A stretch of DNA of 64,000 bases from Solanum dulcamara (taxonomy: Eukaryota > Streptophyta > Magnoliopsida > Solanales > Solanaceae). The DNA is taken from contig NC_077245.1 of the NCBI RefSeq assembly GCF_947179165.1, positions 20,249,740-20,313,739 of the forward strand. The letters are read 5' to 3'. The notes under the pieces were generated by a model, which had not been told where the DNA came from, did not search any database, and saw only the letters and a program-made list of their open reading frames with translations. This document shows positions 27,438 to 64,000 of this stretch, piece by piece. Position numbers and translations under genes: made by a program. The stretch's first letter is position 1; each line of letters begins with the position of its first letter.

Positions 27438-27598
27438 GTTTGGAGTGGCTGACTAGGTTATTTAATGTCATTTTTAAGATGGCAACGACGTCGAAGAATG
27501 GAGGCCGAGCGTAATGATCTCCCTATACAAAACCAAGGGGGATATCCTAGAGTTACAACAACTATAGAGGTATCAAGCTTCTAAGCCATACTCTGAAG

Positions 27599-39612: not shown

Positions 39613-39643
39613 ATTAGCACCTAAGTTTGGAAATAAGGAGTCG

Positions 39644-41011: not shown

Positions 41012-41109
41012 TTATTGATGATGAACCTTTCAAAGAGACAGAAGCGCACTTTGTTGATGCAAAATTCTACTAAAAGAATCATGTTTCAAAAGAAGTCAAA
41101 ATTGATAAC

Positions 41110-42315
41110 GTGATATCTACTGATGCCACAAACAAGGTTGATGTAGCACCTAATAATGCGAGGGTCATGATTGAAAAGAATAAAATGCTTTCAGATATGA
41201 GTAAAGTACCTTATACAAGTGAGGCATCTTCAAGTAAGAGAATGATTCCTATTTGTCACTATGTACCAAAGATAAACAAGGTCAAGATCCTACCCTCTGA
41301 GTTGCAGAGTTGCAAGTTGACATTTCCTATCAAGCAAATTGATGCAATCAAATCACCTTCAAAAATGATAGAAGGATTTATTAGACCATCAATTCATGAT
41401 TCATATGAATCACTTCCTAAAAAGCGTACAAATGAGGGTTTTGACCCAAATGCATATAAGTTGTTGGTGAAAGCAGGATACAATCCCAATGAAGCTTTTA
41501 AAGTAGGGATTCCAAATGAAGTTATTGAAAAGGCAAATTATGGCCTAAATCCAACTCAAAGAATGATGATAGAGAGAGGGTATATTGTCAAGCAATCATG
41601 CGAAGGCTTGGGTTACAAACAAATGTCGCCAGTTCGAATCTCTATAAAAAGAATGAGCATCAACTACATTACCCCTGTGGAAGAACCTATGATGTTCAAC
41701 AAGAAGCCTTTTGTGTTTGATCGACTTAGTGACATGACTCCTAACATTTCTGCATTTGATCGGCTAATCAAATCAACTTCAAAAACTTCAGTGTTTGATC
41801 GGTTGGGACCAATGAAGAAGAAATACAAGTGTCAAGGAAATTATAAAATAATAGAAGAACGGGTACATGCTCGAGAGCATAATTCACCCAAGAATTTCCC
41901 CAGTTTGATTCCTTCTAGAATGAGGGGAGAAAAAAAACTTGTAGTTTCATATGGAGATTTCCTGAGAGCAAGAACTCATACCATAGTTCACACTAGGGAG
42001 CGAGATGAAGATGAAGAAAGTGTGGGATTATCAAATCACATTATAATTTGTGATGAGGAAAGTATTTCACTATATACAAAAATTGAGGATGGGTTTGTTG
42101 ATATTCATGCATGTCATCACATATCTCTTAAAGATGGTGATCCTCAAGAAGATGAGGATGCTGAAGATGCGCCACCTGAACTCGAGAAAGGGATAAAAAA
42201 TACCATTGATGCATTAAAGGAAGTAAATCTTGGGGTTGATGATGATATAAGGCCTACATATGTAAGTGCTTCATTGGATGACGATGAAGAGAAGAAATAT
42301 ATTGAGCTGTTATAG
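41110..42315 (+). pseudogene. Protease-RT linker of Tat-type element
   Basis: A 401-codon open piece. It has KAGYNPNEAFKVG, YGLNPTQRMMIERGY and GLGYKQMSPVRI, then FVFDRLS and SVFDRLG repeats. These are characteristic of the linker in Solanaceae gypsy elements; no enzyme is encoded. It ends at a TAG just before the RT. Confidence 0.75.
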
Positions 42316-42317
42316 AA

Positions 42318-43214
42318 TTTAGGGACGTATTTGCTTGGAGTTACAAAGAGATGCCAGGATTAGACCCTAAAGTTGCAGTTCATCGTCTTGCCGTGAAATG
42401 AGGCACTCGTCCTGTTAAACAAGCTCAACGTCACTTTAGACCTGAACTGGTTCCTTTGATCGAAACTGATGTTAACAAGCTCACTGAAGTAGGTTTCATT
42501 CGTGAAGTCAAATATCCTACATGGATTTCAAGCATTGTATTTGTAAGAAAGAAGAATGGCCAAATACGAGTTTGTGTTGACTTTAGAGATCTTAATAATG
42601 CATGCCCTAAGGATGAATTTCCTCTTCTATTCTCTAGGCTTATGATTGATGCCACAACTGGATACGAGATAATGTCTTTCATGGATGGTTCATCTGGATA
42701 CAATCAAATTCGCATGGCACCAAGGGATGAATAACTTACTGCATTTCGCACGCCTAAAGGTATATATTGCTACAAAGTAATCCCTTTTGGTTTAAAAAAT
42801 GTTGGGGCTACTTATCAACGAGCCATGAAAAATATCTTTGATGACATACTTCATAAAACCGTTGAGTGCTATATTGATGACTTAGTAGTAAAATCAAGGA
42901 AGAGTGATGACCATTTGCAAGATTTGAGAATGGTGTTCGAACGACTTCGAAGATACCAACTCAAAATGAACCCTTTAAAATGTGCCTTTGAAGTTACTTC
43001 GAGAAAGTTTCTCGGTTTTATTGTTCGACATCGAGGAATCAAAATTGACCAAGATAAGATAAATGCTATTTTGAAGATATCTGAGCCAAAAAATATTCAT
43101 AAGTTAAAAAGCTTACAGGGAAAATTAGAATATCTTAGGAGGTTTATATCAAATCTAGCCGAGAGATGTCAACCGTTCAGTCGCCTTATGAAGAAAGATG
43201 TTCCTTTTGAATAG
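42318..43214 (+). pseudogene. Tat-type reverse transcriptase (broken)
   Basis: Contains FIREVKYPTWISSIVFVRKK, RVCVDFRDLNNACPKD, MDGSSGYNQIRM and the catalytic YIDDLVVKS box near 42870. A TAA at 42732 splits the palm. RKFLGFIVRHRGI and KIHKLKSLQGKLEYLRRF-like sequence form the connection. Two open pieces, 42456-42734 and 42825-43214. Confidence 0.9.
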
Positions 43215-43720
43215 GACCAAGCTTGTACCAATGCTTTCAAGAACATAAAGTCTTATTTGATGAAGCCTTCAGTACTTGTAGCTCCTATACGTGGAAAACC
43301 ATTGATTTTATGCATTACAGCATAAGAAAGGTCAGTAGGAGCACTTCTCGCATAAGAAAATAATGAAGGGAAAGAAAATGCCCTGTATTACTTGAGTAGG
43401 ATGATGACACAAAATGAGATCAAATATTCACCTATTGAGAAGTTATGTCTGGCACTCGTATTATTGATTCAGAAGATGAAGCACTACTTCCAAGCTCATA
43501 TTATACAACTTGTCTCTAAAGCGAATCATATCAAGTTTGTCATGTCCAAGCCTGTCTTAAGTGATCGACTAGCAAGGTGGTACCTCCAATTTTAACAATT
43601 TGAAATTGTGTATATATCTCAGAAGGCAGTAAAAGGACAAGTGCTAGCAGATTTCTTGGCCAATCATCCAATTCCGGACCTTTTCTCGAAAAAAAAAATC
43701 TTGCAACTACGAAAACAATG
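43215..43720 (+). pseudogene. RNase H attached to RT (broken)
   Basis: Reads ACTNAFKNIKSYL, PLILCITA, ENALYYLSRMM, EIKYSPIEKLCLAL and DRLARWYLQF, the order expected after a gypsy RT. It has several in-frame stops (43213, 43323, 43353, 43593). Confidence 0.8.
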
Positions 43721-43769
43721 ATTAGGAGTTATCTGACGAAGACGTAATGCTAGTGGAAATTCAGCCACC

Positions 43770-44200
43770 TTGGAAGATATATTTTGACGGTGTTGCACAT
43801 CGTGAAGGAGCCGGTGCTGGATTGGTATTTATCACTTCACTCTAACACAACACTGCTCCAATAATGTTGCTGAATATCAAGCACTCTTACTTGGGCTTGA
43901 AATGGCCATTGATATGAAACAATTGCAAATACAAGTTTTTGGGGATTCCAAGTTGGTGATCAATTAAGTCTTGGGTAATTATGAAGTAAAGAAGCCTAAG
44001 TTACTCCCATACTGCAATTATGCTCAAAAGATGATAGGATGGCTTGAAAAGGTGACTATTCAACATGTCCCTAGAAAGGAAAATAAGAATGCTGATGTGT
44101 AGGCAGCTTTAGCTTCTGCATTAGTATCGCCTGATGAAATGCAAGTTGTGGTTTGCCAAATATGGATAACTCCGCCTCCAGATGAGTATGAAGAAGAATT
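43770..44200 (+). pseudogene. Second, Tat-specific RNase H (broken)
   Basis: Reads NVAEYQALLLGLEMAIDMK, QVFGDSKLVIN, KMIGWLEKVTIQHVPRKENK and NADV*AALASALVS. The AEYxALLxGLE and GDSxLVxxQ motifs are those of the extra RNase H of the Tat lineage. There are stops at about 43965 and 44100 and a frameshift before 43870. Confidence 0.85.
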
Positions 44201-44279
44201 TTGACAAGTTATCGCCACTTCAGAGGCTGAAATTGAAGATTGGCGACAACCAATAATAGATTACTTATGTTATGGAATA

Positions 44280-45482
44280 TTGCCAGAAAATCTTCAAAGA
44301 AGGACAAAAATCCGACGACGAGCCCTTCATTTTCTTTATTATAAAAATACACTTTACAGGCGGTCGTTCAATGGAGTTCTTTTACGATGTTTTGGGGCAG
44401 ATGAATCTACTCAAGCTATGCAAGAAACACATTCTGTAGTATGTGGAGCACATCAATCTGGGCCAAAACTTCATTTTCACATAAAAAGGATGGGATATTA
44501 CTGGAAAACCATGGTGAAAGATTGTCTGGATTACGTCCGAAGATGTAAAGCTTGCCAATTCCATGTGAATTTTATACATCAACCCCAGAAGTATTGCACC
44601 CAACTATTATCTCATGGCCATTTGAAGCTTGGGGTTTGGATGTTGTTGGACCATTGCCTAAGTCCTCTGGTGGACATTTGTACATCCTGGCTGCAATTGA
44701 CTACTTCTCAAAATGGGCAAAAGTTGTTTCTTTTTGAGAAGTGAAGAAAGAGAATGTCGCTAACTTCATTTGATTCAATATTATCTACCGTTTTGGTATT
44801 ACTCGATACATATTGACAGATAATGGCAAGCCATTTGATAACAAGTTAATGACAAAGATATGTGATCTTTTTGTCTTCAAGCAACGCAATTCCTCTATGT
44901 ATTATGCGGCTGCTAATGGTCTCGCTGAAGCATTTAACAAGACGCTCTGCAACTTGTTGAAGAAAGTTGTTTCCAAGTCTAAGAGAGATTGGCATGAAAG
45001 AATGGAAGAGGCTCTTTGGGCATATAGGACTACGTATCGCACGCCAACACAAGCGACTCCCTATTCTCTTATTTATGGAGTTGAAGCAGTCCTTCCACGT
45101 AAGCGTCAAATCCCATCATTGCGCTTGCTATTCAAGAAGGACTCACTAATGAAGAAAATGCTCGGTTACGCCTTGAAGAATTGGAGGCTCTTGATGAAAA
45201 AAGACTAGAGGCCCAATAAAGTCTGGAATGTACCAAGCTCGTCTAGCTCAATCTTTTAATAATAAGGTTCGTCTTAGATGCTTCCAAGTGGGTGATCAAG
45301 TTCTTGTTATAAGAAGACCTATTATTACTTCTCGTCGGTCTAGAAGCAAGCTTTCTGCTAAATGGGATGGATCATATGTGGTACAAGAAGTATACTCAAG
45401 TGGCGCTTACAAACTGGTCGACTCAGAAGGATTGCGCATTGGCCCCATTAATAGAAAGTTCATAAAGAGATACTATCCTTGA
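44280..45482 (+). pseudogene. Tat-type integrase (broken)
   Basis: The zinc-binding HHCC part reads HQSGPKLHFHIKRMGYYW, VRRCKACQ. The catalytic core reads AWGLDVVGPLP, RYILTDNGKPFDN and NGLAEAFNKTLCN, the three acidic positions being visible. The C-terminal part at 45228-45482 contains VLVIRRPIIT and LSAKWDGSYVVQEVYSSGAY. Frameshifts near 44570 and 45208 and a TGA at 44736 break it. Confidence 0.88.
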
Positions 45483-46078
45483 AGAAAAGAAATATGCTCC
45501 TTAAGGTACAAACTGCATGTTACTCCTAGCCCGTAAGAGTATAAACTGTGCACGACATCAAAAAAAATATATCCGCTAGGTTGAAAATCTCGAAAGAGGC
45601 GTCTAGGCAAAAGTTAGTACACAAAAAAAAATCACTCTTTCAAAACTACTTTATGACTTGATCCTCTTCACTGAGGTACGTAGGTGCTTGAAATTACATT
45701 CTGAGTTCAGTCGCATGGGTATCCAAAAAATACATAGTCTCTCTTGACCCTTTTCGCCGAGGTCCGTGGTGCTTAGAGTTACATCCTAAGTTTAGTCTCA
45801 TAAGTTCAAAAGAAAAGGGACACGTTATTATTTGAGCATCACAATATTCTTGTAGATTGTCATATATAACGTGTGAATTAGAGAAAGCCAATCAAGACAG
45901 AATTTGAATTGACTTCAAAGAAATATTCATACAAATATGTAAAGTTATTAATTGTGATTATTGTACACAGTGTAGTTCTATGAATCTTCTTTTCGACTTC
46001 TCTACGCTGAGATATGAGTATTTTTAATAAAATCATGCGAATATGAATCTGTCATTTTTCCTGCATGTAAAGTATTTG

Positions 46079-46690
46079 TCTTAGACAGTGTAAAAAATCT
46101 TTGGCTTGGGCTATGGGATGCCTTTGGCTCAGACGGTGTAAAGTCTTTGCCACAAATCATATAAAGTCTTTGCCTCAGACGGTGTAAAGTCTTTGGCATA
46201 AACTATGTAATGTCTTTGACTCAGACGGTATAAAGTCTTTGCCACAAATCATATAAAGTATTTGCCTCAGACGGTGAAAAGTCTGTGGCTTGGACTATGT
46301 GATGCCTTTGACTCAGACGGTGTAAAGTGTTTGCCACGAATTATATAAAGTCTTTGCCACAAATCATATAAAGTTTTTGCCTCAGACGGTGTAAAGTCTT
46401 TGGCTTGGACTATGTGATGCCTTTGACTCAGACGATGTAAAGTCTTTGCCATAAATCATGTAAAGTTTTTTGCCTCAGACGGTGTAAATTCTTTGGCTTG
46501 GACTATGTGATGCCTTTGACTCAGACGGTGTAAAGTCTTTTACATAAATCATGTAAAGTTTTTGCCTCAGACAGTGTAAAGTCTTTGGCTTAGACTATGT
46601 GATGCATTTGATTCAATCGGTGTAAAGTCTTCGTCAAAGATAATGTAAAATTATTGGCTCAAACAATGCAGCATCTTTGACTCCAATAGA
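46079..46690. repeat. 46-bp satellite with 92-bp higher-order unit
   Basis: About 13 subunits of 46 bp, each starting TCAGACGGTGTAAAGTCTTT. Two subtypes alternate: one continues GGCTTGGACTATGTGATG, the other GCCACAAATCATATAAAG. It sits in the 3' non-coding part of the Tat-type element, where such satellites are often found. Confidence 0.88.
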
Positions 46691-47028
46691 ATAAAAGTTC
46701 ATTGTATATGAAGTAATATTTTCACTTGCAAAAAAAATGGCCTAAATAAAAAAAACGTACCTCGTATCTTGATGAACTCAAGAGTGTATGCAAAAAAGAG
46801 CATCAAAATTGTCAATGCCAATGATAAAAATAAATAAAATGAGAGAGTATATTTATAGACAAATAGTGATGGTGAGGGAGTCCTTCTCCCAAAGTAACTA
46901 TAATTACTTTTTGGGTTAGGACTCTAGTGGATTGGTACAAATTTATTCTCTCCAAATCCTAATTGATTGTGAAATTGTGAAAAATTTGGGCTATCCGTAT
47001 TCTAAAAGGAGCGTGTCCTTTCTCTAAT

Positions 47029-49000: not shown

Positions 49001-49132
49001 TTGGATCCAAGATGAATAATGGAGATATGTGTCTTTTGGATAGTGTCACAACTCATACGATATTAAAAGAAAAGAAATATTTCTGTCATTTGATTATGAA
49101 AAAATGTCAATATAATATCCGGTAGTACAAAA

Positions 49133-49870
49133 TTGATTGAAGGCTCTGGAAGAGCGGCTTTATTACTACCTGGAGGAACTATATTGGTAATTGATAATGC
49201 ATTGTATTATAGTAAGTCTCAAAGAAACTTGTTAAGTTTCAAGGTTATTCGCCAAAATGACTATCATATTGAGACTGCGAATGAAGGAAAGGTTGAATAC
49301 CTTTATATTACAACAATAAATATGGAGAAGAAAATTGTGCACGAAAAATTACCTGCACTTTCTTCTGGATTGTACCGTACAAATATTAGTACTGTTGAAT
49401 CACATGCCATTGTAAACAAAAGGTTTACTAATTCTAATGATTGTATCATTTGGCATGACCGGTTGGGCCATCCCGATTATACTATGATGCGCAGAATTAT
49501 TGAAAATTCACATGTACACACTTTGAAGAATCAGAAAATTCTTCAATCTAAGGAATTCTCTTGTGTTGCTTGTTCCCAAGAAAAACTGATTATTAAATCA
49601 TCAGCAACTAAGGTTGGGATTAAATCTCCTGCGTTTCTAGAACGTATACAGGGTGATATATGTGGGTCAATTTACCCTTCATGTGGACCATTTAAATATT
49701 ATATGGTCTTGATAGATGCATCTACAAGATGGTCACATGTGTGCTTATTACCAACTTGCAACATAGCTTTTTCGAGATTGTTAGCTCAAATTATAAGGTT
49801 AAGAGTACAATTTCCATATTATGCAATAAAGACAATTCGTCTTGATAATGTTGGTGAATTTACATCTTAA
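49133..49870 (+). pseudogene. Copia protease end and integrase N-terminal part
   Basis: Contains GSGRAALLLPGG, LSFKVIRQNDYHIET, IWHDRLGHPDYTMMRRII (the H of the zinc domain), FSCVACSQEK, ERIQGDICGSIYP and YYMVLIDASTRWSHV. It reaches IRLDNVGEFTS, where the usual DNG/AGEF is present as DNVGEF, then a TAA at 49868. Confidence 0.85.
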
Positions 49871-49975
49871 TCCTTTAATGATTATTGTATGTCGGTTAGA
49901 ATAAAAGTTGAGCATCCGGTCACTCATGTCCATACTCAAAATGGTCTAGCAGAATCATTGATTAAACGCCTCTAA

Positions 49976-50566
49976 TTGATAGCTAGACCATTGCTAATGA
50001 GGATAAAACTTCCTATTTTAGTATGGAGGCATGCTATTTTGCATGCAGCAACACTTGTGCGCATAAGACCAACAATTTTTCATGAATTTTCCCCATTACA
50101 GTTGTCTTTTGGAAGGAAGCCAAATATATCTCATCTTAGAATATTTGGGTGTGCGGTATATGTCTCAATTGCTCCACCGCACCACACAAAGATGGGTCAC
50201 CAAAGAAGGTTGGAAATATATGTTGGGTATGAATCTCCTTCTATTATAAAATATTTGGAACCTATGACTGGAGATTTATTTACGGCAAGATTCGTTGATT
50301 GTCATTTTGATGAATCGGTATACCCAACATTAGGGGGAGAACATAAGCAATTGAAAAATAAGATAGATTGGAATTCATTATCACTATCTCATTTAGATCC
50401 TCGAACAAATCAATGTGAGCAAGAAATTCAAAAGATGATTTATTTACAGAATATTGCAAATCAACTGTCGGATGCATTTAATAACCTTCCACGGGTTACT
50501 AAATTGCATATCCCAGCTGCTAATGCTCAAGTTCGAGTTGATGTTCCGGTAGGACAACTTGTTTAG
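49976..50566 (+). pseudogene. Copia integrase C-terminal part
   Basis: Reads LPILVWRHAILHAATLVRIR, FSPLQLSFGRKPNISHLRIF and GCAVYVSIAPPHHTKMGHQR, the standard integrase end of copia polyproteins, followed by a variable Ser/Asn-rich link. A stop at 50564 ends this piece. Confidence 0.85.
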
Positions 50567-51034: not shown

Positions 51035-51393
51035 GTGCATAAACGAAATGAAAAGGGTGAAGTCATAAGATATAAAGCACGACTTGTAGCCCAAGGTTTT
51101 TCGCAAAGACCTGACATTGACTATATGAAAACATATTCCCCTGTGGTGGATGCAATTACCTTCAGGTATCTAATAAATTTGACAGTTCATGAAAAGCTTG
51201 AAATACACCTAATGGACGTGGTCACTGCCTATTTATATGGCTCATTGGACCACGATATTTTTATGAAAATTTTTGAAGGATTCAAAGTGCCTGAAGCATA
51301 CAAGGATTCTCGAGAAACTTGCTCAATAAAGCTTCAGAAATCCTTATACGGGTTGAAACAATCAGGGCGCATGTGGTACAAACTATTATTAGT
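51035..51393 (+). pseudogene. Copia reverse transcriptase, 5' part
   Basis: Reads YKARLVAQGFSQRPDIDYMK, TYSPVVDAITFRYLI, LMDVVTAYLYGSLDHDIFMK and SLYGLKQSGRMWYKLL. The catalytic YVDD box is missing because the element is cut just downstream. The last residues of the open frame (after 51385) come from the flanking repeat. Confidence 0.88.
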
Positions 51394-53892
51394 GGTAATG
51401 TATGTCACATTTTTACAATGAGTGTTGAAAGAAAATTTATCTTATAAATAAATAACAACATATCCAATATAGTTTTATAAGTGAGATATTGAGAGGATGG
51501 TGTGTACACAATCATGTTCCTATCCTATGAAAATCGATAGATTATTTTTGAAAGAAAAATTTAGTTACTTAATATAAATTGTGTGAATAAATCTTTTTCT
51601 CTATTGTTATAAGTATTTTTCTAATTTCGTCATTGCTTAATAAATCATATAAGAGAAGAATTTTTTAAAATTTTTACTTCTCTACGTTTTTTTGGTATAA
51701 TTCATAAATATACACTCAAACTTGACTTAAATGATAACTCAATATTTCAACTTTGAGTATGCACTTCTAAACACCACAACTCATCTCCATTATTTCAGTT
51801 GAACACTCCAACTTACAAAAAGATCATCTAGACCCATTCAAAATTTAATGTGTCACATCATCATCGAGTGTATAGAGACATGATAAAGTCGAGTTGAGGT
51901 ATTTAGTTGCTAGAAGAGACCAATTTGAAGTGTTTAGATATGTACTTCTAAAGTTGGAGTACTTACTTACCAACTACGTTCAATTAAACGTCTGTTTATG
52001 TATTATGCCTTTATTTTCTCATTCTAATTTTAAATAATTAGTGCTTAGATAAACTATTATTAATTAGTGGCAATGCGTGTTACCTTTTTTACAACACGCG
52101 TTAAAAAAAATCAACTAACAAATAAATAACATATCAAATATAATCTTACATGTAGGATATTGATGGCAAGTGAAAGGCAAAAAAATGAAAAAAGTTAGAT
52201 CAACATTGGACACATGTCCTTTTTTAATTGGTCAATAATTTTATTTTTTAATATTTTATTTGATTTTCTTCACTTATTTTGATATCAGTCCAAAATAAAG
52301 TTATTTTAAAATACAATACATTTGGAATTATATTTGAAATCAAATAAAAAGAAAAAGCAAGTAAAATAGAAAGAATAAATAAAATCAATAGAAAAAAGAA
52401 AAAAAATGAATGAGGGTAAAAAAAATATGAAAAAAATAAGAAGTTTAAATACAAGGCAAAGAAAATAAGAATATTTTTTAAAAAAATTAAAAATAAAAAT
52501 AAACATGTGGCGGCATGTGTTACACAACACAACCAACTTACTTGATTGAAGGTATCATGTCAGCACAAACAATGCACGAAAATACAGAAAAAATGAGTTT
52601 GAGGGGACTAATAAAACCTAGTTAAATTTAGGTGTGTCGTTGAGATTTCGAGCATAGTTTTGAGGGGAAGGGGGGTTACTTGTGTTTCTCCCTTCTTTTT
52701 TTCTCAATCGAATTTTGAAATAAATAATGGATTAGACGACCTATTATTAGTGTAACGTATGTCGCGTTTTTCGATAATGCGTGTCAGATTTTTCACAATG
52801 CGTGTCACACTTTTTACAACGCGTGTTGAAAGAATATTCATCTACCAAATAAATAATAACATATCCAATATAATTTTATAAGTGACGAGAGGGTCGTGTG
52901 TATACAATCTCATTTTTACCTTATGAAAATAAATAAATTATTTCTGAAAGAAAATTTTAGATATTTAATATAAATCAAGTGTAAATAAATATTGTTCTCT
53001 AATGTAAAAAGTATTTTTCTAATTTCACCGTTGTTTAATAAATCAAATAAGAGAAGAAAATTTTCTAATTTTTACTTCTCTCCGTATTTTCTTAATACAT
53101 AATCATACACTCAAATAATAATTAAATATTTTAACTTTGAATATGAACATATAGAAACCGCAACTTATCTCCATTGTATTAGTTGAATGCTCTAACTTAC
53201 AAAATGATCACCTAGACACCTCTAAAAATTTATGTGTCACATCATCATCGAGTTTCTAGAGACACAGTAAAAATAAATTGGAGTGTTTAGTTGCTAGTTG
53301 AGACAAAGCCAAAATATTTAGATGTATGCTTTTAAAATTGGAGTGTTTTTAGTTGCCAACTACGATCAATTTGAGTGTCTGTTTATGTATTGTGGTTTTT
53401 TTTCTCATTGTAATTTTTAAATAAATAATGCATTAGACAAATTTTATTAGTAATAACGCGTGTCACATTTTTCACAACGTGTGTTGAAAAAAATAATCCA
53501 GATAACAAACAAATAGTAACATAGCAAGTGTAATTGTACATATAAGATATTGAAAGTATGGTGTGTACTCATTCTTATCCGTTATCTTTGAAGATAAAAA
53601 GACTATTTCCGATAAAAATTAAATAAGTTGCTTAATATCATATCGAGTATGAATAAATATTTTCCCCCTATTGTAATGAGTATTTTTTTCAATTTCATCA
53701 TTGCTTAATAAATCAATCACGAGAAGAAAATTTTCTAGTTTTTACTTTTCTATATTTTTTTCTCAATCTAATTTTTAAATGAATTATGCATTAGACAAAC
53801 TATAATTAGTGGTAACGTATGTCACGCTCACGCTTATTACAAAAGCATGTCAGAATTTTCATGTGTTTGAAAGAAAATTCATCTAACAAATA

Positions 53893-54545
53893 AAGAGAAA
53901 AAACCTAAAATAGTCCCTTATTTTTGGGTCAAGACTCAAAGTCATCATTGAGTTTTCATATAAAGCACTAATAGTCCCTCATATTTATAATATTGATGCA
54001 CTTTTGGTCCCCCCCTAAACTTTTGCCTATTTTTTTAATATTGATTTTGTCCACAATTTCATATATGAAATGTTCAATTGTCTTTTTATATATTTAGCAG
54101 AAACAATAATTTCATGTGAGAAAATGTGGAAAAAAAATGCCTTGTTCTTTTAGTAAAAATATTATTGAAGCTATAATTCGAAAGGTTCATCACGTCGATT
54201 TCACGCGTAATAGTACAAAAATATCTTTTCTTGCAATGTCATATGTCAAAGTTTTCTTAGTTTAGTGACAATAAAATTTCTTTTGAACAGAATAAAGTGT
54301 TTTTCTTCTCACCTTCTCTCACATGAAGTTATTAATACTAGTAAATATATATAAAAAGATGATTGAACATTCCATATATAAAATTGTTGATAAAATTAAT
54401 TTTAAAAAATAGGTAAAAGTTTGGGGGAGGACCAAAAGTGCACCAATATTACAAACATGAGGACTATTAGTGCTTCATGTGAAAACACAAGGATAACTTT
54501 GAGTGTTAACACAAAGATAAGGAACTATTTTGGGCTTTTTCTCTT
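53893..54545. mobile_element. Element with about 200-bp terminal inverted repeats
   Basis: The left end AAGAGAAAAAACCTAAAATA mirrors the right end, and the mirror extends about 200 bp inwards (CACTAATAGTCC, TGCACTTTTGGTCC, TTTTTATATATTTA blocks). No transposase is seen. The long TIR suggests a Mutator-like or fold-back element; a possible 9-bp duplication is not exact. It interrupts a unit of the 690-bp array. Confidence 0.8.
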
Positions 54546-55404
54546 ACAAAAATTATAGCCAAGAAAATAATAAGATAAAATATAGCCAAATTCGCTATTT
54601 AGTCACCATTTATCTCTATTTAGCCACGATTAAATTGTGGCTAATTAACATTATTTTTATTTTTATTAGTCACGAGTTACTTTTACTTTTATTCTGTAAA
54701 AGTGAGATATTAAAAGGATAGTGTGTACATAATTTTACCTTTAACTTATGCAATAAATAGATTGTTTTCAAAAGAAAAATTCAACTACTTAATAAAAATC
54801 AAGTGTTAATAAATATTTTTCTCTACTAAAATAAATATTTTTTCTAATTTCATCATTGCTTGATAAATCAAACAAGAGAATGAAAGTTCCTAATTTTTAC
54901 TTCTCTACGTTTTTCTGACATAATACATAATTATACACTCAAATTTGATATCAATTGATAATTCAATATACCAACTTTGAATATGCATATCTAAACAACA
55001 TAACTTGTCTTCGCTGTGTCAGTTGAACACTCCAACTTGCAAAATGATCTCCTAGATACCTCCAAAAATTTATGTGCTACGTGAGCATCGAGTGTCTAAA
55101 AACACAATAAAAACAAGTTGGAGTGTTTAGTTGCTAGTTGACACTATGTTAAGATGTTTAAATATGTATTGTTAAAGTTGAAGTGCTTACTTCGCCAATC
55201 AATTGAGTGTCCATTTATGTATTATGTGTTTCTTTTTTTCTCATTTTAATCTTGAAATAAATAATGTATCAGACGAATTATTATTCATGATAAGTCGTGT
55301 CACGTTTTTCACAATGTGTGTTGAAAAAAAATTAAGCTTATAAATAAATAATAATATAATAAGTATAATCAAACAAATAAGATATTCGAATTATGGTGTG
55401 CACT

Positions 55405-55740
55405 TATTCTTATCTGTATCTTTGAAGGTAGATAAACTATTTTCAAAAAAAATTAAATCAATTGCTTAATATAATATTGTACTCATTCTTATCCGTATCT
55501 TAAAGGTAGAGAGACTATTTTCGAAAAAACTTAAATCAATTATTTAATATAATTTTGTACTCATTCTCATATGTATCTTTGAAGATAGTAAGACTATTTT
55601 CGAAAAAATATAAATCAATTGCTTAATATAATATTGTACTCATTCTTATTTGTATTTTTAAAGATACAGAGACTATTTACGTAAAAAATTAAATCAATTG
55701 CCTAATATGTAGAAAGACTATTTCCGAAAATAAATAAATA
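55405..55740. repeat. 77-bp minisatellite
   Basis: About four units of 75-80 bp: TTGTACTCATTCTTAT, GTATCTTTAAAGGTAG, GAGACTATTTTCGAAAAAAT, TAAATCAATTGCTTAATATA. It forms the end of the last unit of the 690-bp array. Confidence 0.85.
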
Positions 55741-55854
55741 AATTGCTTAATATAATTTTGAGTGTGATTAAACATTTTTTTTCTCATACCAAAAAGAACT
55801 AGGGAAAAAAGTTTTATATAAATATACTTTTTTGGACTAGATAGTTTTTCTTAA

Positions 55855-55965
55855 TATTTCCTCATAAATGATTTAATTTGTGTAGATTCTCTCTCTAATA
55901 AAGCATAAACATTTTCCCCTTTGCCAACAAACACACATTACCCTTTTCCTCTCATTCTTCTCCTT
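55855..55965 (+). repeat. Upstream segment of eIF4G-like gene, copy A
   Basis: A direct copy of 56917-57024 with over 90 percent identity. Shared order: ATTTCCTCATAAATGATTT, GTAGATTCTCTCT, AAGCATAAACATTTTCCCCT, CCAACAAACACACATTACCC, TTTTCCTCTCATTCTTCTCC. Copy B sits at the normal place just before the leader, so copy A is likely a displaced promoter duplicate. Confidence 0.9.
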
Positions 55966-55983
55966 CTTTTTCTCTTTCTCAGA

Positions 55984-56913
55984 GTTTTTGGCTAAAAATA
56001 TTCCTTAACTATGAGATAAACTTAAAGTATATCCTTGTACTATAAAAATGAACAAAAAACATTTCTTATCTAAGTCAAAAATTGTAATATTCATCCTTTT
56101 GTTAGTTTCTTGGCAAAAACTAACGACTATGATCTAAAAGTCAATAGTTTGACCTGACAACTTGGATTTAAGAAAAGACAAAATTCAAAGTTGAATAAAC
56201 AACATAAAATACTACATACAACTTGCTTAGTTTTGTCATCTACCAATCAATTGATTCAAATCCAATTTGCCAATTGCACACTTAAGCCAAAAAAGAAAAA
56301 TATATATCAAAGAATAAGTCTTAATAGATATGAACAAAACAATCAAAGCTACAATTGAAGCATTGAAATAAAAGAACTGACAGTAATAAATACAATGAAA
56401 AACTTATTTAAAAAGAAAAAAACTGTATATTGACAAAGTAAATTATCCCTTTTATGCAATTGTTGAAACATTCATATCATAAAGAGTTCGGTTGAAAGAT
56501 TATACAGAAATAGAGTTTCTTGTACTAAGAATTTTCACTAAAGCCTTTACTTCCGTTGAATCCTCTACTGTCTTTTTTCATTCGATCCGTTTTCATTTCT
56601 GTTGTCTGTTGGCCCTCACTACTTGATCCAGATGAGTTTTAGCTCATATTCACTCATCGGATTACTGTACTGATCACTGCTGCAAAAAAGTCGTCACACG
56701 TCGATTACAAGGTTGAAGATGAAAGATACAAAAAATAGAGCGGGGGAGGAAGGAAGAAAAATGACCATAGCCATTAATTTTTGTCAAAAAATTAATGGAA
56801 AAATGAATATTGTAATTTTTAATATAAATAAAGAATATTTTTTATTTATTTTTATAATACATAGGATGTACCTTGAGTTTGTCCCACGGTACAGGATGTT
56901 GCTAGCCAAAAAC
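55984..56913. mobile_element. 930-bp TIR element between promoter copies
   Basis: The left end GTTTTTGGCTAAAAATATTC and the right end TGCTAGCCAAAAAC are inverted repeats. Similarity runs about 75 bp inwards (TATCCTTGTACTATAAAAAT against ACATCCTATGTATTATAAAAAT read in reverse). There is no transposase. The open frame at 56713-56928 is spurious. No clear target duplication; the flanks are the two promoter copies. Confidence 0.7.
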
Positions 56914-56916
56914 TTT

Positions 56917-57161
56917 ATTTCCTCATAAATGATTTAATTTGCGTAGATTCTCTCTAAAGCATAAACATTTTCCCCTTTACCAACAAACACACATTACCCT
57001 TTTCCTCTCATTCTTCTCCTTTCTCTTCCTCATTTTTCGTTTGCACTGTGGTCATGGCTTGCACCAATCATCATTCTCATTGAAACCCTAAGTTCGGCAC
57101 TCTTTTTTTCTTTTCAGGTAAGCAGCCACTGTGACTATTACTGTTTCTAGGGTTTGTATTT
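56917..57161 (+). promoter_or_regulatory. Promoter-proximal copy B and 5' leader of eIF4G-like gene
   Basis: 56917-57024 is copy B of the repeated segment. A CT-rich leader follows, with TTTTTTCTTTTCAGGTAAGC at 57101-57120, which could act as acceptor or donor, and the first ATG of the long frame is at 57162. A transcription start near 57000 is plausible but not shown. Confidence 0.55.
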
Positions 57162-60100
57162 ATGTCCTACAATCAATCAAGGTCTGACACTCGCGAGTCG
57201 TCTCAGAAGAGAACCGGCCGATCCGGTAGCTTTAATCAGCACCGCGGCGATAGAGTTGATGCTGACAGGTGGCAGCGTGGAACTGCTTTCCAAAATTGTT
57301 TAATGCCATCTCCTCAGACACCTGCGCAGAATATGCACAAAGCTGAAATAAAGTATGAAGTAGGTAAAGTAACGGATGAGGAACAAGCCAAGCAGAGACG
57401 GCTGAAAGCTATCTTAAATAAGGCGACTCCCCAGAACTTCGAAAAAATATTCCAGCAAGTGAAAGAAGTCAATATTGATAATGTTGTCACACTCAATGGA
57501 GTAGTTTCTCAGATATTTGACAAAGCTTTGATGAAGCCAACTTTTTGTGAGATGTATGCCAACTTATTTCAACACCTAGCAGCGGAGTTGCCTGATCTGA
57601 GTGTGGACAAAGAAAAAATCACTTTTAAGAGGTTACTTCTAAACAAATGTCAGGAAGAGTTTGAGAGAGGGGAAAGAGAAGAGCTAGAAGCTAATGTGAC
57701 TAATGAGGAGGGCGAAGTAAAACTGTCAGCAGAGGAGAGGGAGGAAAAAAGAGTCGAAGCACGGAGACGAATGTTGGGCAATATAAGACTGATTGGTGAA
57801 CTTTACAAGAAGAGAATGTTGACAGAGAGAATTATGCATGAGTGCATCAAGAAGTTGTTAGGTGACTATCAAAATCCTGACGAGGAGAATGTTGAAGCTT
57901 TGTGTAAGTTGATGAGTACAATTGGCGAGATGATAGATCATGCCAAAACAAAGGAACATATGGATGCATACTTCGATAGGTTGGAAAAGTTGTCAAATAA
58001 CATGAAACTTTCTTCTAGGGTGAGGTTTATGTTGAAGGATTCAATTGATCTAAGAAAGAACAAATGGCAGCAAAGGAGAAAAGTAGAAGGGCCTAAGAAG
58101 ATCGAGGAAGTGCATAGGGATGCTGCCCAAGAACGACATGCACAAGCTACTAGGCTTGCTCGTACTCCTAGTCTGGGAGGTTCTAGTAGAAGGGGTCAAC
58201 CTGTGGATTTTGATCCCAGAGGAGGGAGTATATTGTCTTCTCCGGGCTCCCAGATGGGGGGTTTCTGTCCTATGCCTCCACAGGTCCGTGGCTATGGCAT
58301 GCAGGATGTACGGGCGGATGAGAGGCATTCTTTCGAGAATAGGACATTATCACTTCCCCTGACCCAGAGGCCTCTTGGTGATGATCCGATCACACTTGGA
58401 CTCCCAGATGAGGAACAAGCCAAGCAGAGACGGCTGAAAGCTATCTTAAATAAGGCGACTCCCCAGAACTTCGAAAAAATATTCCAGCAAGTGAAAGAAG
58501 TCAATATTGATAATGTTGTCACACTCAATGGAGTAGTTTCTCAGATATTTGACAAAGCTTTGATGAAGCCAACTTTTTGTGAGATGTATGCCAACTTATT
58601 TCAACACCTAGCAGCGGAGTTGCCTGATCTGAGTGTGGACAAAGAAAAAATCACTTTTAAGAGGTTACTTCTAAACAAATGTCAGGAAGAGTTTGAGAGA
58701 GGGGAAAGAGAAGAGCTAGAAGCTAATATGACTAATGAGGAGGGCGAAGTAAAACTGTCAGCAGAGGAGAGGGAGGAAAAAAGAGTCGAAGCACGGAGAC
58801 GAATGTTGGGCAATATAAGACTGATTGGTGAACTTTACAAGAAGAGAATGTTGACAGAGAGAATTATGCATGAGTGCATCAAGAAGTTGTTAGGTGACTA
58901 TCAAAATCCTGACGAGGAGAATGTTGAAGCTTTGTGTAAGTTGATGAGTACAATTGGCGAGATGATAGATCATGCCAAAACAAAGGAACATATGGATGCA
59001 TACTTCGATAGGTTGGAAAAGTTGTCAAATAACATGAAACTTTCTTCTAGGGTGAGGTTTATGTTGAAGGATTCAATTGATCTAAGAAAGAACAAATGGC
59101 AGCAAAGGAGAAAAGTAGAAGGGCCTAAGAAGATCGAGGAAGTGCATAGGGATGCTGCCCAAGAACGACATGCACAAGCTACTAGGCTTGCTCGTACTCC
59201 TAGTCTGGGAGGTTCTAGTAGAAGGGGTCAACCTGTGGATTTTGATCCCAGAGGAGGGAGTATATTGTCTTCTCCGGGCTCCCAGATGGGGGGTTTCTGT
59301 CCTATGCCTCCACAGGTCCGTGGCTATGGCATGCAGGATGTACGGGCGGATGAGAGGCATTCTTTCGAGAATAGGACATTATCACTTCCCCTGACCCAGA
59401 GGCCTCTTGGTGATGATCCGATCACACTTGGACTCCCAGATGAGGAACAAGCCAAGCAGAGACGGCTGAAAGCTATCTTAAATAAGGCGACTCCCCAGAA
59501 CTTCGAAAAAATATTCCAGCAAGTGAAAGAAGTCAATATTGATAATGTTGTCACACTCAATGGAGTAGTTTCTCAGATATTTGACAAAGCTTTGATGAAG
59601 CCAACTTTTTGTGAGATGTATGCCAACTTATTTCAACACCTAGCAGCGGAGTTGCCTGATCTGAGTGTGGACAAAGAAAAAATCACTTTTAAGAGGTTAC
59701 TTCTAAACAAATGTCAGGAAGAGTTTGAGAGAGGGGAAAGAGAAGAGCTAGAAGCTAATGTGACTAATGAGGAGGGCGAAGTAAAACTGTCAGCAGAGGA
59801 GAGGGAGGAAAAAAGAGTCGAAGCACGGAGACGAATGTTGGGCAATATAAGACTGATTGGTGAACTTTACAAGAAGAGAATGTTGACAGAGAGAATTATG
59901 CATGAGTGCATCAAGAAGTTGTTAGGTGACTATCAAAATCCTGACGAGGAGAATGTTGAAGCTTTGTGTAAGTTGATGAGTACAATTGGCGAGATGATAG
60001 ATCATGCCAAAACAAAGGAACATACGGATGCATACTTCGATAGGTTGGAAAAGTTGTCAAATAACATGAAACTTTCTTCTAGGGTGAGGTTTATGTTGAA

Positions 60101-63100
60101 GGATTCAATTGATCTAAGAAAGAACAAATGGCAGCAAAGGAGAAAAGTAGAAGGGCCTAAGAAGATCGAGGAAGTGCATAGGGATGCTGCCCAAGAACGA
60201 CATGCACAAGCTACTAGGCTTGCTCGTACTCCTAGTCTGGGAGGTTCTAGTAGAAGGGGTCAACCTGTGGATTTTGATCCCAGAGGAGGGAGTATATTGT
60301 CTTCTCCGGGCTCCCAGATGGGGGGTTTCTGTCCTATGCCTCCACAGGTCCGTGGCTATGGCATGCAGGATGTACGGGCGGATGAGAGGCATTCTTTCGA
60401 GAATAGGACATTATCACTTCCCCTGACCCAGAGGCCTCTTGGTGATGATCCGATCACACTTGGACTCCCAGATGAGGAACAAGCCAAGCAGAGACGGCTG
60501 AAAGCTATCTTAAATAAGGCGACTCCCCAGAACTTCGAAAAAATATTCCAGCAAGTGAAAGAAGTCAATATTGATAATGTTGTCACACTCAATGGAGTAG
60601 TTTCTCAGATATTTGACAAAGCTTTGATGAAGCCAACTTTTTGTGAGATGTATGCCAACTTATTTCAACACCTAGCAGCGGAGTTGCCTGATCTGAGTGT
60701 GGACAAAGAAAAAATCACTTTTAAGAGGTTACTTCTAAACAAATGTCAGGAAGAGTTTGAGAGAGGGGAAAGAGAAGAGCTAGAAGCTAATGTGACTAAT
60801 GAGGAGGGCGAAGTAAAACTGTCAGCAGAGGAGAGGGAGGAAAAAAGAGTCGAAGCACGGAGACGAATGTTGGGCAATATAAGACTGATTGGTGAACTTT
60901 ACAAGAAGAGAATGTTGACAGAGAGAATTATGCATGAGTGCATCAAGAAGTTGTTAGGTGACTATCAAAATCCTGACGAGGAGAATGTTGAAGCTTTGTG
61001 TAAGTTGATGAGTACAATTGGCGAGATGATAGATCATGCCAAAACAAAGGAACATATGGATGCATACTTCGATAGGTTGGAAAAGTTGTCAAATAACATG
61101 AAACTTTCTTCTAGGGTGAGGTTTATGTTGAAGGATTCAATTGATCTAAGAAAGAACAAATGGCAGCAAAGGAGAAAAGTAGAAGGGCCTAAGAAGATCG
61201 AGGAAGTGCATAGGGATGCTGCCCAAGAACGACATGCACAAGCTACTAGGCTTGCTCGTACTCCTAGTCTGGGAGGTTCTAGTAGAAGGGGTCAACCTGT
61301 GGATTTTGATCCCAGAGGAGGGAGTATATTGTCTTCTCCGGGCTCCCAGATGGGGGGTTTCTGTCCTATGCCTCCACAGGTCCGTGGCTATGGCATGCAG
61401 GATGTACGGGCGGATGAGAGGCATTCTTTCGAGAATAGGACATTATCACTTCCCCTGACCCAGAGGCCTCTTGGTGATGATCCGATCACACTTGGACTCC
61501 CAGATGAGGAACAAGCCAAGCAGAGACGGCTGAAAGCTATCTTAAATAAGGCGACTCCCCAGAACTTCGAAAAAATATTCCAGCAAGTGAAAGAAGTCAA
61601 TATTGATAATGTTGTCACACTCAATGGAGTAGTTTCTCAGATATTTGACAAAGCTTTGATGAAGCCAACTTTTTGTGAGATGTATGCCAACTTATTTCAA
61701 CACCTAGCAGCGGAGTTGCCTGATCTGAGTGTAGACAAAGAAAAAATCACTTTTAAGAGGTTACTTCTAAACAAATGTCAGGAAGAGTTTGAGAGAGGGG
61801 AAAGAGAAGAGCTAGAAGCTAATGTGACTAATGAGGAGGGCGAAGTAAAACTGTCAGCAGAGGAGAGGGAGGAAAAAAGAGTCGAAGCACGGAGACGAAT
61901 GTTGGGCAATATAAGACTGATTGGTGAACTTTACAAGAAGAGAATGTTGACAGAGAGAATTATGCATGAGTGCATCAAGAAGTTGTTAGGTGACTATCAA
62001 AATCCTGACGAGGAGAATGTTGAAGCTTTGTGTAAGTTGATGAGTACAATTGGCGAGATGATAGATCATGCCAAAACAAAGGAACATATGGATGCATACT
62101 TCGATAGGTTGGAAAAGTTGTCAAATAACATGAAACTTTCTTCTAGGGTGAGGTTTATGTTGAAGGATTCAATTGATCTAAGAAAGAACAAATGGCAGCA
62201 AAGGAGAAAAGTAGAAGGGCCTAAGAAGATCGAGGAAGTGCATAGGGATGCTGCCCAAGAACGACATGCACAAGCTACTAGGCTTGCTCGTACTCCTAGT
62301 CTGGGAGGTTCTAGTAGAAGGGGTCAACCTGTGGATTTTGATCCCAGAGGAGGGAGTATATTGTCTTCTCCGGGCTCCCAGATGGGGGGTTTCTGTCCTA
62401 TGCCTCCACAGGTCCGTGGCTATGGCATGCAGGATGTACGGGCGGATGAGAGGCATTCTTTCGAGAATAGGACATTATCACTTCCCCTGACCCAGAGGCC
62501 TCTTGGTGATGATCCGATCACACTTGGACTCCCAGATGAGGAACAAGCCAAGCAGAGACGGCTGAAAGCTATCTTAAATAAGGCGACTCCCCAGAACTTC
62601 GAAAAAATATTCCAGCAAGTGAAAGAAGTCAATATTGATAATGTTGTCACACTCAATGGAGTAGTTTCTCAGATATTTGACAAAGCTTTGATGAAGCCAA
62701 CTTTTTGTGAGATGTATGCCAACTTATTTCAACACCTAGCAGCGGAGTTGCCTGATCTGAGTGTGGACAAAGAAAAAATCACTTTTAAGAGGTTACTTCT
62801 AAACAAATGTCAGGAAGAGTTTGAGAGAGGGGAAAGAGAAGAGCTAGAAGCTAATGTGACTAATGAGGAGGGCGAAGTAAAACTGTCAGTAGAGGAGAGG
62901 GAGGAAAAAAGAGTCGAAGCACGGAGACGAATGTTGGGCAATATAAGACTGATTGGTGAACTTTACAAGAAGAGAATGTTGACCGAGAGAATTATGCATG
63001 AGTGCATCAAGAAGTTGTTAGGTGACTATCAAAATCCTGACGAGGAGAATGTTGAAGCTTTGTGTAAGTTGATGAGTACAATTGGCGAGATGATAGATCA

Positions 63101-63949
63101 TGCCAAAACAAAGGAACATATGGATGCATACTTCGATAGGTTGGAAAAGTTGTCAAATAACATGAAACTTTCTTCTAGGGTGAGGTTTATGTTGAAGGAT
63201 TCAATTGATCTAAGAAAGAACAAATGGCAGCAAAGGAGAAAAGTAGAAGGGCCTAAGAAGATCGAGGAAGTGCATAGGGATGCTGCCCAAGAACGACATG
63301 CACAAGCTACTAGGCTTGCTCGTACTCCTAGTCTGGGAGGTTCTAGTAGAAGGGGTCAACCTGTGGATTTTGATCCCAGAGGAGAGAGTATATTGTCTTC
63401 TCCGGGCTCCCAGATGGGGGGTTTCTGTCCTATGCCTCCACAGGTCCGTGGCTATGGCATGCAGGATGTACGGGCGGATGAGAGGCATTCTTTCGAGAAT
63501 AGGACATTATCACTTCCGCTGACCCAGAGGCCTCTTGGTGATGATCCGATCACACTTGGACTCCAAGGTGGTCTTGCAAAGGGAATGTCTTCCAGTGGCC
63601 AACCTGCAGGACCAAGCATTGATAGTATGTCAAGTTTTGAAGACTCGAGAAGGATGACACATGCCCAAAATGGCTATGGTTCTTTGCCAGAGCGCCCCGT
63701 TATGGTTCAAGAGAGGAGCTTATACCCAAATACATGTCTGACCGATTATCGTCAACATGATCAATCAAGTACACCAGAAAGGAATGTGACTTATGTGAGC
63801 AAGGAGTGTGGATTTGATACATCTTGGCCTACTTCACCACTTGTAAGAAGTGGAGGGCCAACTTCCACACAAAATGTGGCTCCAGACAAGATGTGGCCAG
63901 AAGAACGTCTGCAGGACATGTCTATGGCTGCTATCAAGGAATTCTACAG
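57162..63949 (+). CDS. eIF4G-like factor with six tandem MIF4G domains (partial)
   Basis: Scaffold protein of cap-dependent translation initiation by family; the MIF4G domain normally binds eIF4A and RNA. Start MSYNQSRSDTRESSQKRTGR is the conserved plant eIF4G N-terminus, but after about 30 residues it passes directly to DRWQRGT and MPSPQTP, which lie just before MIF4G, so the long N-terminal part with the eIF4E-binding motif is missing. Residues 72-2134 are six near-identical 344-residue units, each a MIF4G domain (LKAILNKATPQNFEKIFQQV ... SSRVRFMLKDSIDLRKNKWQ) plus a Gly/Arg-rich linker. A single C-terminal linker follows to AAIKEFY, where TTCTACAG/GTACTTTC is a splice donor (63949/63950); the open frame runs on only to a TGA at 63963-63965 in the intron. 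MA3 exons should lie beyond the window. No frameshift or stop occurs. A normal plant eIF4G has one MIF4G. An assembly artefact must be excluded. Confidence 0.88.
57375..58406 (+). repeat. MIF4G tandem unit 1
   Basis: Residues 72-415. Its left border (GTAACG/GATGAGG) is the native sequence of the gene. It shows no difference from the six-unit consensus. Confidence 0.95.
58407..59438 (+). repeat. MIF4G tandem unit 2
   Basis: Residues 416-759. It has one difference from consensus: G to A at 58728, Val to Met in EANVTNEE. The junction CTCCCAGATGAGG at its left border is the same as at all later borders. Confidence 0.95.
59439..60470 (+). repeat. MIF4G tandem unit 3
   Basis: Residues 760-1103. 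It has one difference: T to C at 60025, Met to Thr in KEHMDAYF. Confidence 0.95.
60471..61502 (+). repeat. MIF4G tandem unit 4
   Basis: Residues 1104-1447. No difference from consensus was seen, so it is apparently identical to unit 1. Confidence 0.95.
61503..62534 (+). repeat. MIF4G tandem unit 5
   Basis: Residues 1448-1791. One synonymous difference: G to A at 61733 in the Val codon of LSVDKEK. Confidence 0.95.
62535..63563 (+). repeat. MIF4G tandem unit 6, most diverged
   Basis: Residues 1792-2134. It has four differences: 62890 (Ala to Val), 62984 (synonymous), 63385 (Gly to Glu in the linker) and 63518 (synonymous). Its right border passes to the native CTCCAAGGTGG. As the unit joined to the unique C-terminal part it is probably the oldest copy. 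Confidence 0.95.
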
Positions 63950-64000
63950 GTACTTTCTGAACTGATTATTATTTACTTTCATTTTATTTATATTGGTCTG
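63950..64000 (+). other. Start of next intron of eIF4G-like gene
   Basis: It begins GTACTTTCTG and is AT-rich to the end of the window. The acceptor and next exon are outside. Confidence 0.7.

What the first reader, a model, noticed from the sequence alone, without database searches (positions are those of the whole stretch)
57162..63949. eIF4G-like gene with six in-frame tandem MIF4G domains
The sequence shows one open frame with six copies of a 344-codon unit, each a full MIF4G domain plus linker. Known plant eIF4G and eIFiso4G proteins have a single MIF4G. The N-terminal eIF4E-binding region is missing, so a translated product would be a multivalent, cap-independent MIF4G array that could bind several eIF4A molecules or compete with normal eIF4G. 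That role is inference. I know of no described protein of this form.
Basis: partly seen in the sequence, partly recalled or inferred. Interest (0 to 1): 0.93.

Follow-up and report, generated by a model that had tools for sequence, protein, structure and literature searches.

The report
Six-MIF4G eIF4G duplicate in bittersweet
Bittersweet nightshade carries a copied eIF4G translation-factor gene that lost most of its front part and now holds six nearly identical MIF4G domains in one open frame; it would make a protein predicted to bind the helicase eIF4A but not the cap-binding factor, and databases hold similar predicted arrays from many unrelated plants.

Summary
In detail: an open frame at 57162-63965 holds six 1032-nt units, 0-6 differences apart. 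The genome is Solanum dulcamara, chromosome 9. The frame is only the first coding exon: it ends at a GT donor (63949|63950) and two MA3 exons follow outside the window, 2437 aa in all. It is not a retrocopy but a DNA-level duplicate of the chromosome 4 eIF4G gene, with 5' flank and 3' introns kept. A 4226-bp deletion removed most of the N-terminus, including the eIF4E-binding motif; the MIF4G segment was then amplified. The form is not unique: 27 of 299 database proteins examined carry 2-4 MIF4G domains, none with the eIF4E motif pattern; copies cluster within 15 plant lineages. Against function: the unit evolves as if neutral (12 nonsynonymous:2 synonymous; parent 2:9), 7 of 8 derived MIF4G changes hit near-invariant sites, and no matching protein was listed. 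If translated, it would be a cap-uncoupled multivalent eIF4A binder, perhaps with weakened sites (L17A). Expression is untested.

The parts
57162..63949 (+). First coding exon of the duplicate eIF4G gene: exon-1-derived start, fused MIF4G exon, six units, linker, up to the GT donor at 63950
   Evidence: ORF; donor identical to the parent's, and the same splice pattern on C4 reproduces the C-terminus of P0005
57162..57252 (+). Piece of eIF4G exon 1 (MSYNQSRSDTRESSQKRTGRSGSFNQHRG...)
   Evidence: alignment to C4 exon 1
57253..57255 (+). GAG shared by both sides at the junction of a 4226-bp deletion relative to the chromosome 4 parent
57256..57374 (+). Single-copy segment before the array (DADRWQRGTAFQ...KYEVGKVT)
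57375..58406 (+). Unit 1: MIF4G + tail + linker
58407..59438 (+). Unit 2 (1 private change, V to M)
59439..60470 (+). Unit 3 (1 private change, M to T)
60471..61502 (+). Unit 4 (identical to unit 1)
61503..62534 (+). Unit 5 (1 synonymous difference, the base also found in the parent)
62535..63566 (+). Unit 6 (4 private changes besides the array boundary)
63567..63949 (+). Linker to MA3, with a -1 and a -2 indel that together restore the frame
   Evidence: alignment; translation
51378..57161 (+). Upstream flank duplicated with the gene (about 55981-56915 has no match in the parent)
   Evidence: BLASTN C4x vs C9x; start coordinate approximate

Best explanation
This is the first coding exon of a young, structurally intact duplicate of the eIF4G gene that lost its eIF4E-binding N-terminus and gained six tandem MIF4G domains, and its product would likely be a cap-uncoupled, multivalent binder of eIF4A. 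Shown: the chromosome 4 eIF4G locus, from roughly 5 kb upstream to about 1.5 kb downstream (about 14 kb), has a collinear copy on chromosome 9, interrupted by insertions. Relative to the parent, 4226 bp between exon 1 and the MIF4G part are missing at a shared GAG. A 1032-nt segment stands in six in-frame copies. Two MA3 exons with intact splice sites follow, giving a 2437-codon frame. Inferred: amplification by unequal crossing over. Also inferred: if translated, the six MIF4G domains plus MA3 would engage eIF4A (and perhaps eIF3 or RNA) without eIF4E, titrating it from normal eIF4F in the manner of PDCD4 or supporting cap-independent initiation in the manner of DAP5. The unit no longer shows the ancestral eIF4G constraint, and all six copies carry L17A next to the eIF4A contact region, so each site may be weak and the gene is probably dispensable.
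For: ORF and units. Parent at 95% aa and other copies in the genome. Collinearity, deletion and junctions. Spliced frame of 2437 codons with its only stop at the end; the same splice pattern on C4 reproduces the C-terminus of P0005. Six MIF4G. Predicted HEAT fold, best PDB match human eIF4G-HEAT1 in a complex with eIF4A (8huj_B, E 6.1e-13). Human eIF4A-contact residues R764, T773, Q783 and D982 correspond to the same residues R9, T18, Q28, D222 of the unit; S767 and Q779 correspond to A12 and K24, as in the C4 parent; S738 was not mapped. The contact list is from PMC7470955 section 15; the mapping is mine, through. Precedent for an eIF4G relative without eIF4E site, DAP5: PMC10746786 passages. 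Precedent for tandem eIF4A-binding domains, PDCD4: PMC3850090 passages. Recurrence. No excess of C-to-T decay in the duplicate (28 vs 30 transitions).
Against: No expression evidence. C9-branch changes in the unit match neutral expectation (12 N: 2 S, P(N>=12) 0.42). 7 of 8 C9-derived MIF4G changes are at sites at least 98% conserved in 171 other eIF4Gs, slightly more than chance would give (P 0.05). No S. dulcamara protein for this locus appeared among the 120 listed hits or. L17A (human L772) could damage eIF4A binding. About 0.94 kb near the leader has no match in the parent, and about 0.2 kb of what looks like the parent's 5'UTR intron is missing.
Confidence: 0.55

Rival explanations
1. 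A non-functional duplicate in an early stage of decay: the open frame survives only because the copy is young, and no protein is made or needed.
For: Unit evolves at neutral proportions on the C9 branch; changes fall on near-invariant sites; two frame-shifting indels in the linker; no protein of the locus among the listed hits; with 30 random substitutions the frame stays stop-free in about 30% of simulations.
Against: No stop within 2437 codons; the deletion, the unit length and the paired indels all keep frame (each about 1 in 3 by chance, judged after the fact); splice sites are intact and MA3 has few changes (3 N: 3 S); no C-to-T decay excess. In apple, a comparable array is found in two Malus species and their first copies group, though with modest support (84/85).
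Confidence: 0.38
2. Antiviral or regulatory decoy: the MIF4G array is kept because it soaks up eIF4A or viral proteins that target the eIF4G MIF4G domain.
For: A norovirus VPg binds the MIF4G/HEAT-1 domain, and the same paper cites evidence for the VPg of a plant virus, RYMV (PMC4703368 passages); arrays recur in many plants, in this sample always without the eIF4E motif pattern.
Against: No selection signal, no expression data, no infection data; relaxed constraint in the arrays examined is equally expected for decay.
Confidence: 0.1
3. Assembly artefact: false expansion of a shorter array.
For: Units nearly identical, two of them wholly; reads not inspected.
Against: Units 2, 3, 5, 6 are each distinguishable; array of 6.2 kb against 12-20 kb HiFi fragments at 27x, assembly QV 57.2.
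Confidence: 0.04
4. Retrocopy or reverse-transcribed circular RNA of eIF4G.
For: Six head-to-tail copies without introns between them; the frame looks intronless from the window alone.
Against: The parent's MIF4G lies in one 1055-codon open frame, so no intron is expected inside a unit; both 3' introns and about 5 kb of 5' flank are kept.
Confidence: 0.01

Closest known systems
Canonical plant eIF4G (here P0005 on chromosome 4)
   Same: Exon 1 start, MIF4G, tail after MIF4G, MA3, 3' intron positions
   Different: One MIF4G versus six; eIF4E-binding motif and long N-terminus missing in the duplicate; constraint relaxed
Malus predicted proteins P0001 (4 MIF4G), P0124 and P0125 (2 MIF4G)
   Same: Exon-1-like start, no eIF4E motif pattern, tandem MIF4G, MA3 kept
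   Different: Separate place in the domain tree; 321-residue spacing; 2-4 units
DAP5/eIF4G2 (animals)
   Same: eIF4G relative without eIF4E and PABP sites, MIF4G plus MA3 (PMC10746786 passages)
   Different: One MIF4G, has a W2 domain; a studied, working factor
PDCD4 (2 MA3; 4 MA3 in land plants)
   Same: Works-like analogy: tandem eIF4A-binding domains that hold eIF4A outside eIF4F (PMC3850090 passages)
   Different: MA3 instead of MIF4G repeats; different family
UPF2
   Same: Three tandem MIF4G domains in one protein (PMC3936715 abstract)
   Different: MIF4Gs with separate roles in NMD; not an eIF4G derivative

Membership tests
Plant eIF4G | MIF4G domain of the eIF4G type | tested here: met
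   Pfam six times; inside the Solanaceae eIF4G clade (100/99) of the domain tree
Plant eIF4G | C-terminal MA3 region | tested here: met
   spliced exons align end to end with the P0005 C-terminus; Pfam itself was not run on these exons
Plant eIF4G | eIF4E-binding motif before MIF4G | tested here: not met
   pattern absent; the segment lies in the 4226-bp deletion
Plant eIF4G | Single MIF4G under strong purifying selection | tested here: not met
   six copies; 12 N: 2 S on the C9 branch against 2 N: 9 S on the C4 branch
Plant eIF4G | Function in cap-dependent initiation | not testable with these tools
   no expression or biochemical data
DAP5/eIF4G2 | C-terminal W2 domain | tested here: not met
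   C-terminus aligns to P0005, whose listed domains are MIF4G and MA3 only
DAP5/eIF4G2 | MIF4G without eIF4E site, cap-independent initiation | tested here: inconclusive
   anatomy fits; activity untested
PDCD4 | Tandem MA3 domains | tested here: not met
   the repeats are MIF4G
UPF2 | UPF2-type MIF4Gs and UPF1-binding region | tested here: not met
   95% identity to eIF4G; UPF2 MIF4G-2 only a weaker fold match, E 7.1e-4; UPF1-binding region not searched for
Retrogene | Loss of parental introns and flanks | tested here: not met
   introns A and B and flanks kept

The most novel reading that the evidence does not exclude
Plants repeatedly convert eIF4G duplicates into cap-uncoupled MIF4G arrays, a MIF4G counterpart of PDCD4, that titrate eIF4A or viral proteins; bittersweet holds the longest one found here, with six units.
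Probability: 0.14. Interest if true: 0.87.

Novelty: new variant of a known kind. Interest (0 to 1): 0.6.

Why it matters
eIF4G is the hub of cap-dependent translation and a host factor that plant RNA viruses use. A locus that drops cap binding and multiplies the helicase-binding module, and the sign that such arrays arose separately in many plant lineages, gives a natural test of what MIF4G valency does when uncoupled from eIF4E. If the arrays prove silent, they still show a recurrent mutational route in eIF4G duplicates and a caution for genome annotation.

Tried and rejected
Retrocopy or circular-RNA origin: my first idea from the window alone; rejected by the retained introns and flanks.

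Selection from pairwise dN/dS: the C4-C9 total is 0.42 and rejects neutrality (P 0.003), but polarising with the chromosome 5 paralog shows that the constraint sits on the C4 branch; so I do not use it as evidence for function.

An eIF4A-binding mutant of eIF4GI at the leucine equivalent to L17 (I recall L732A with L729A and F737A): not found in the library, so the expected effect of L17A rests on recall and on the neighbouring contact residues in PMC7470955.

Papers on tandem-MIF4G eIF4G proteins: I saw none in the listings (14 listed of 16; 0; 5; 10 of 37; 12 of 24; 10 of 17); UPF2 is the only tandem-MIF4G protein I recognised there. Titles and abstract starts only, and the library lacks most subscription papers.

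Rfam scan: 0 matches. The bacterial-type promoter scan found nothing and is not informative for a plant gene.

The first ORF-survival simulation was wrong, because the ancestor was out of frame; redone. The three-way flank alignment misplaced exon 1 of C9; I use only its first 1200 columns. P0141 was left out of the domain tree by oversight (27 of the 28 multi-domain proteins are in it).
Full report
Observation. The window holds one open frame at 57162-63965 (+), 2267 codons. It contains six units of exactly 1032 nt, starting at 57375 and ending at 63566. Units 1 and 4 are identical, units 2, 3 and 5 differ from unit 1 at one base each, and unit 6 at five, one of which is the array boundary. 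Pfam reports six MIF4G domains, and a MIF4G model built from 15 plant eIF4Gs reports six full-length matches of 450-452 bits.

Origin of the window. It is G000:C9:20249740-20313739 in a 942-Mb genome. The parent-like protein P0005 is named Solanum dulcamara and lies on a contig of 82469251 bases, the length of C4. The published assembly lists chromosome 4 at 82.47 Mb and chromosome 9 at 77.01 Mb, as C4 and C9 are (PMC10585204, sections 5 and 6 read). It was built from 27x HiFi with 12-20 kb fragments, QV 57.2. The 6.2-kb array is thus within single-read reach, and differences among units argue against a false expansion. I could not view reads.

The gene is longer than the window. The frame ends at GAATTCTACAG|GTACTTT, a donor identical to the parent's. 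Two further exons follow at C9:20314883-20315077 and 20315171-20315501, with intact splice sites. The spliced frame has 2438 codons including one stop, at the end, so 2437 aa; the same splice pattern on C4 reproduces the C-terminus of P0005 exactly. These exons encode the MA3 region (named from P0005's Pfam entry).

How it arose. BLASTN shows on chromosome 9 a collinear copy of the chromosome 4 eIF4G locus from about 5 kb upstream of the ATG to about 1.5 kb downstream of the stop, with introns, interrupted by insertions on the C9 side. So it is not a retrocopy. Relative to C4, 4226 bp are absent between exon 1 and a point 5' of MIF4G, with GAG shared at the join (57253-57255). The missing part includes KKYSRDFLLKF (seen), which I recognise as the eIF4E-binding YxxxxL-phi motif (recalled; PMC3352336 passages place a 4E-binding site before HEAT-1 in plant eIF4G). 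The repeat junction joins CTTGGACTCC to CAGATGAGG without overlap when the parent's bases are used. All units share nearly all of their 33-37 differences from C4, so most changes came before the amplification or were spread by conversion. Unequal crossing over is my inference. The linker after unit 6 has a -1 and a -2 indel that restore the frame after about 20 codons.

Constraint. Amino-acid differences in the unit were polarised with nine Solanaceae eIF4Gs: 15 are C9-derived (one, Q344P, is the unit junction) and 4 C4-derived. Eight C9-derived changes lie in MIF4G, and 7 of 8 are at sites at least 98% conserved among 171 other full-length eIF4Gs; such sites are 119 of 221 (P(>=7) 0.05). With the chromosome 5 paralog as outgroup, polarisable nucleotide differences are 12 nonsynonymous: 2 synonymous on the C9 branch and 2: 9 on the C4 branch; 5 nonsynonymous and 3 synonymous sites stayed ambiguous. 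The two branches differ (Fisher P 0.001). The C9 ratio fits neutrality (P 0.42); the C4 ratio does not (P 2.6e-5). The outgroup is an old paralog, so single calls may be wrong. This tells against an ancestral-type function. The MA3 exons have only 3 nonsynonymous and 3 synonymous differences. Of 58 transitions in the body, 28 run C to T or G to A from C4 to C9 and 30 the other way, so there is no sign of methylation decay in C9. The 5' flank differs more (79 of 1165 columns) than intron A (23 of 773), which may reflect gene conversion in the 3' part; unexplained.

eIF4A surface. PMC7470955 (section 15, part 1 of 2) lists putative human eIF4GI contacts S738, R764, S767, T773, Q779, Q783 and D982 with eIF4A, transposed from the yeast structure and partly tested. 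By my mapping through, R9, T18, Q28 and D222 are as in human; A12 and K24, at the S767 and Q779 positions, are as in the C4 parent; S738 lies outside the mapped part. L17A (L in 171 of 171 other eIF4Gs) is human L772, directly before T773; L25I is next to the Q779 position. Among 68 domain copies of multi-MIF4G proteins, six others have P at this column (P0122 both, P0129 second, P0189 three), one has a gap, and the rest outside this array have L. I recall that mutation of this leucine together with neighbours disrupts eIF4A binding, but found no paper. The predicted fold of one unit (mean pLDDT 64.8, MIF4G blocks mostly 60-85, residues 263-344 below 50) matches human eIF4G HEAT-1 in a complex with eIF4A best (8huj_B, E 6.1e-13).

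It is not alone. Three protein searches listed the 120 best hits each of 1255, 1291 and 1642; the union held here is 299 proteins. Of 300 (299 plus the window's), 28 have two or more MIF4G matches that cover at least 144 of 221 model positions. None of the 28 has the eIF4E motif pattern, against 150 of 172 single-domain proteins of 1500 aa or more and 66 of 96 shorter ones (Fisher P 7e-21 and 6e-12). The sample is biased to close and, short relatives, and the pattern is a crude regular expression. In a tree of 95 domain sequences from 27 of the 28 multi-domain proteins and 29 single-domain ones, copies from one protein or genus form a clade with support at least 95/80 in Solanum, Malus, Vitis, Citrus, Corylus, Oxalis, Sarracenia, Acacia, Medicago, Daucus, Bidens, Tagetes, Amaranthus, Musa and Nicotiana (15 plant lineages), and in the sponge Ephydatia. 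The Nicotiana protein is eIFiso4G-like, and no single-domain eIFiso4G or sponge protein was in the tree, so those two are weak tests. Tetracentron, Olea, Humulus/Cannabis, Rosa and Mikania do not meet the standard. Conversion inside arrays could mimic part of this, but the Vitis, Citrus, Corylus and Daucus arrays group with the single-domain eIF4G of the same genus with starred support; for Malus (97/76) and Solanum (91/0 with C4, inside a Solanaceae clade of 100/99) that grouping is weaker. Eight of 27 database proteins start like eIF4G exon 1. Apple has 4-unit (P0001) and 2-unit (P0124) forms, and Malus baccata a 2-unit form (P0125). MIF4G copies deviate more at 119 conserved sites (best copy per protein 2-17 in 25 proteins, the two iso4G-like and the sponge protein left out) than full-length single-domain eIF4Gs (median 0, maximum 3) or shorter ones (median 1, mean 3.1). 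Relaxed constraint is therefore common to the arrays in this sample. All are predicted proteins; fused gene models cannot be excluded.

Function. The anatomy predicts a cap-uncoupled scaffold or titrator of eIF4A. Precedents: DAP5, an eIF4G relative without eIF4E and PABP sites (PMC10746786, passages), and PDCD4, where two MA3 domains together compete for eIF4A (PMC3850090, passages). UPF2 shows that tandem MIF4G domains can work in one protein (PMC3936715, abstract). Whether this gene is expressed is unknown; no S. dulcamara protein of this locus was among the 120 hits listed (candidates of 1247-3967 aa) or (451-1435 aa), although an exact match should rank near the top. The decay rival is not far behind a working protein.

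Noticed in passing
G000:C6:75643000-75652000 (L039, minus strand, about 6724-5371, 5105-3935, 2126-1606): Two to three eIFiso4G-like MIF4G sets in tandem, split by introns, matching the three-MIF4G Nicotiana sylvestris protein P0189: a possible second MIF4G array in the same genome, or neighbouring gene copies.
   Followed up: partly
P0139, P0198, P0211 (database proteins): Retrotransposon Gag-type domains fused to eIF4G-derived sequence (all three are listed with MIF4G; starts shown): possible capture of eIF4G by retrotransposons, or model fusions.
   Followed up: no
P0290 (Ephydatia muelleri, 1928 aa): A sponge eIF4G-like protein with four MIF4G domains: tandem MIF4G outside plants.
   Followed up: partly
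G000:C6 about 10472275-10476958 (L024, L025): A third, partial duplicate with eIF4G 5' flank and exon 1, in the first 1200 alignment columns 6.0% from C9 and 8.0% from C4.
   Followed up: partly
window 55899-57028: About 0.94 kb without match in the parent, between two copies of a 74-bp direct repeat (55899-55972 and 56955-57028, 95%) near the leader; 55981-56067 also has an inverted match at 23793-23879.
   Followed up: no
G000:C9:20304000-20324000 versus C4: Divergence from the parent is uneven: 5' flank 6.8%, intron A 3.0%, second MA3 exon 0.9%; perhaps gene conversion.
   Followed up: no
window 46054-46729: Tandem array with a 23-bp period (92-bp higher order).
   Followed up: no
window 7629-8336; 26706-28366; 38522-44744; 49100-50566: By eye: an auxin-response-factor-like exon, a LINE-like reverse transcriptase, and broken Gypsy- and Copia-like fragments (names recalled, not searched).
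   Followed up: no
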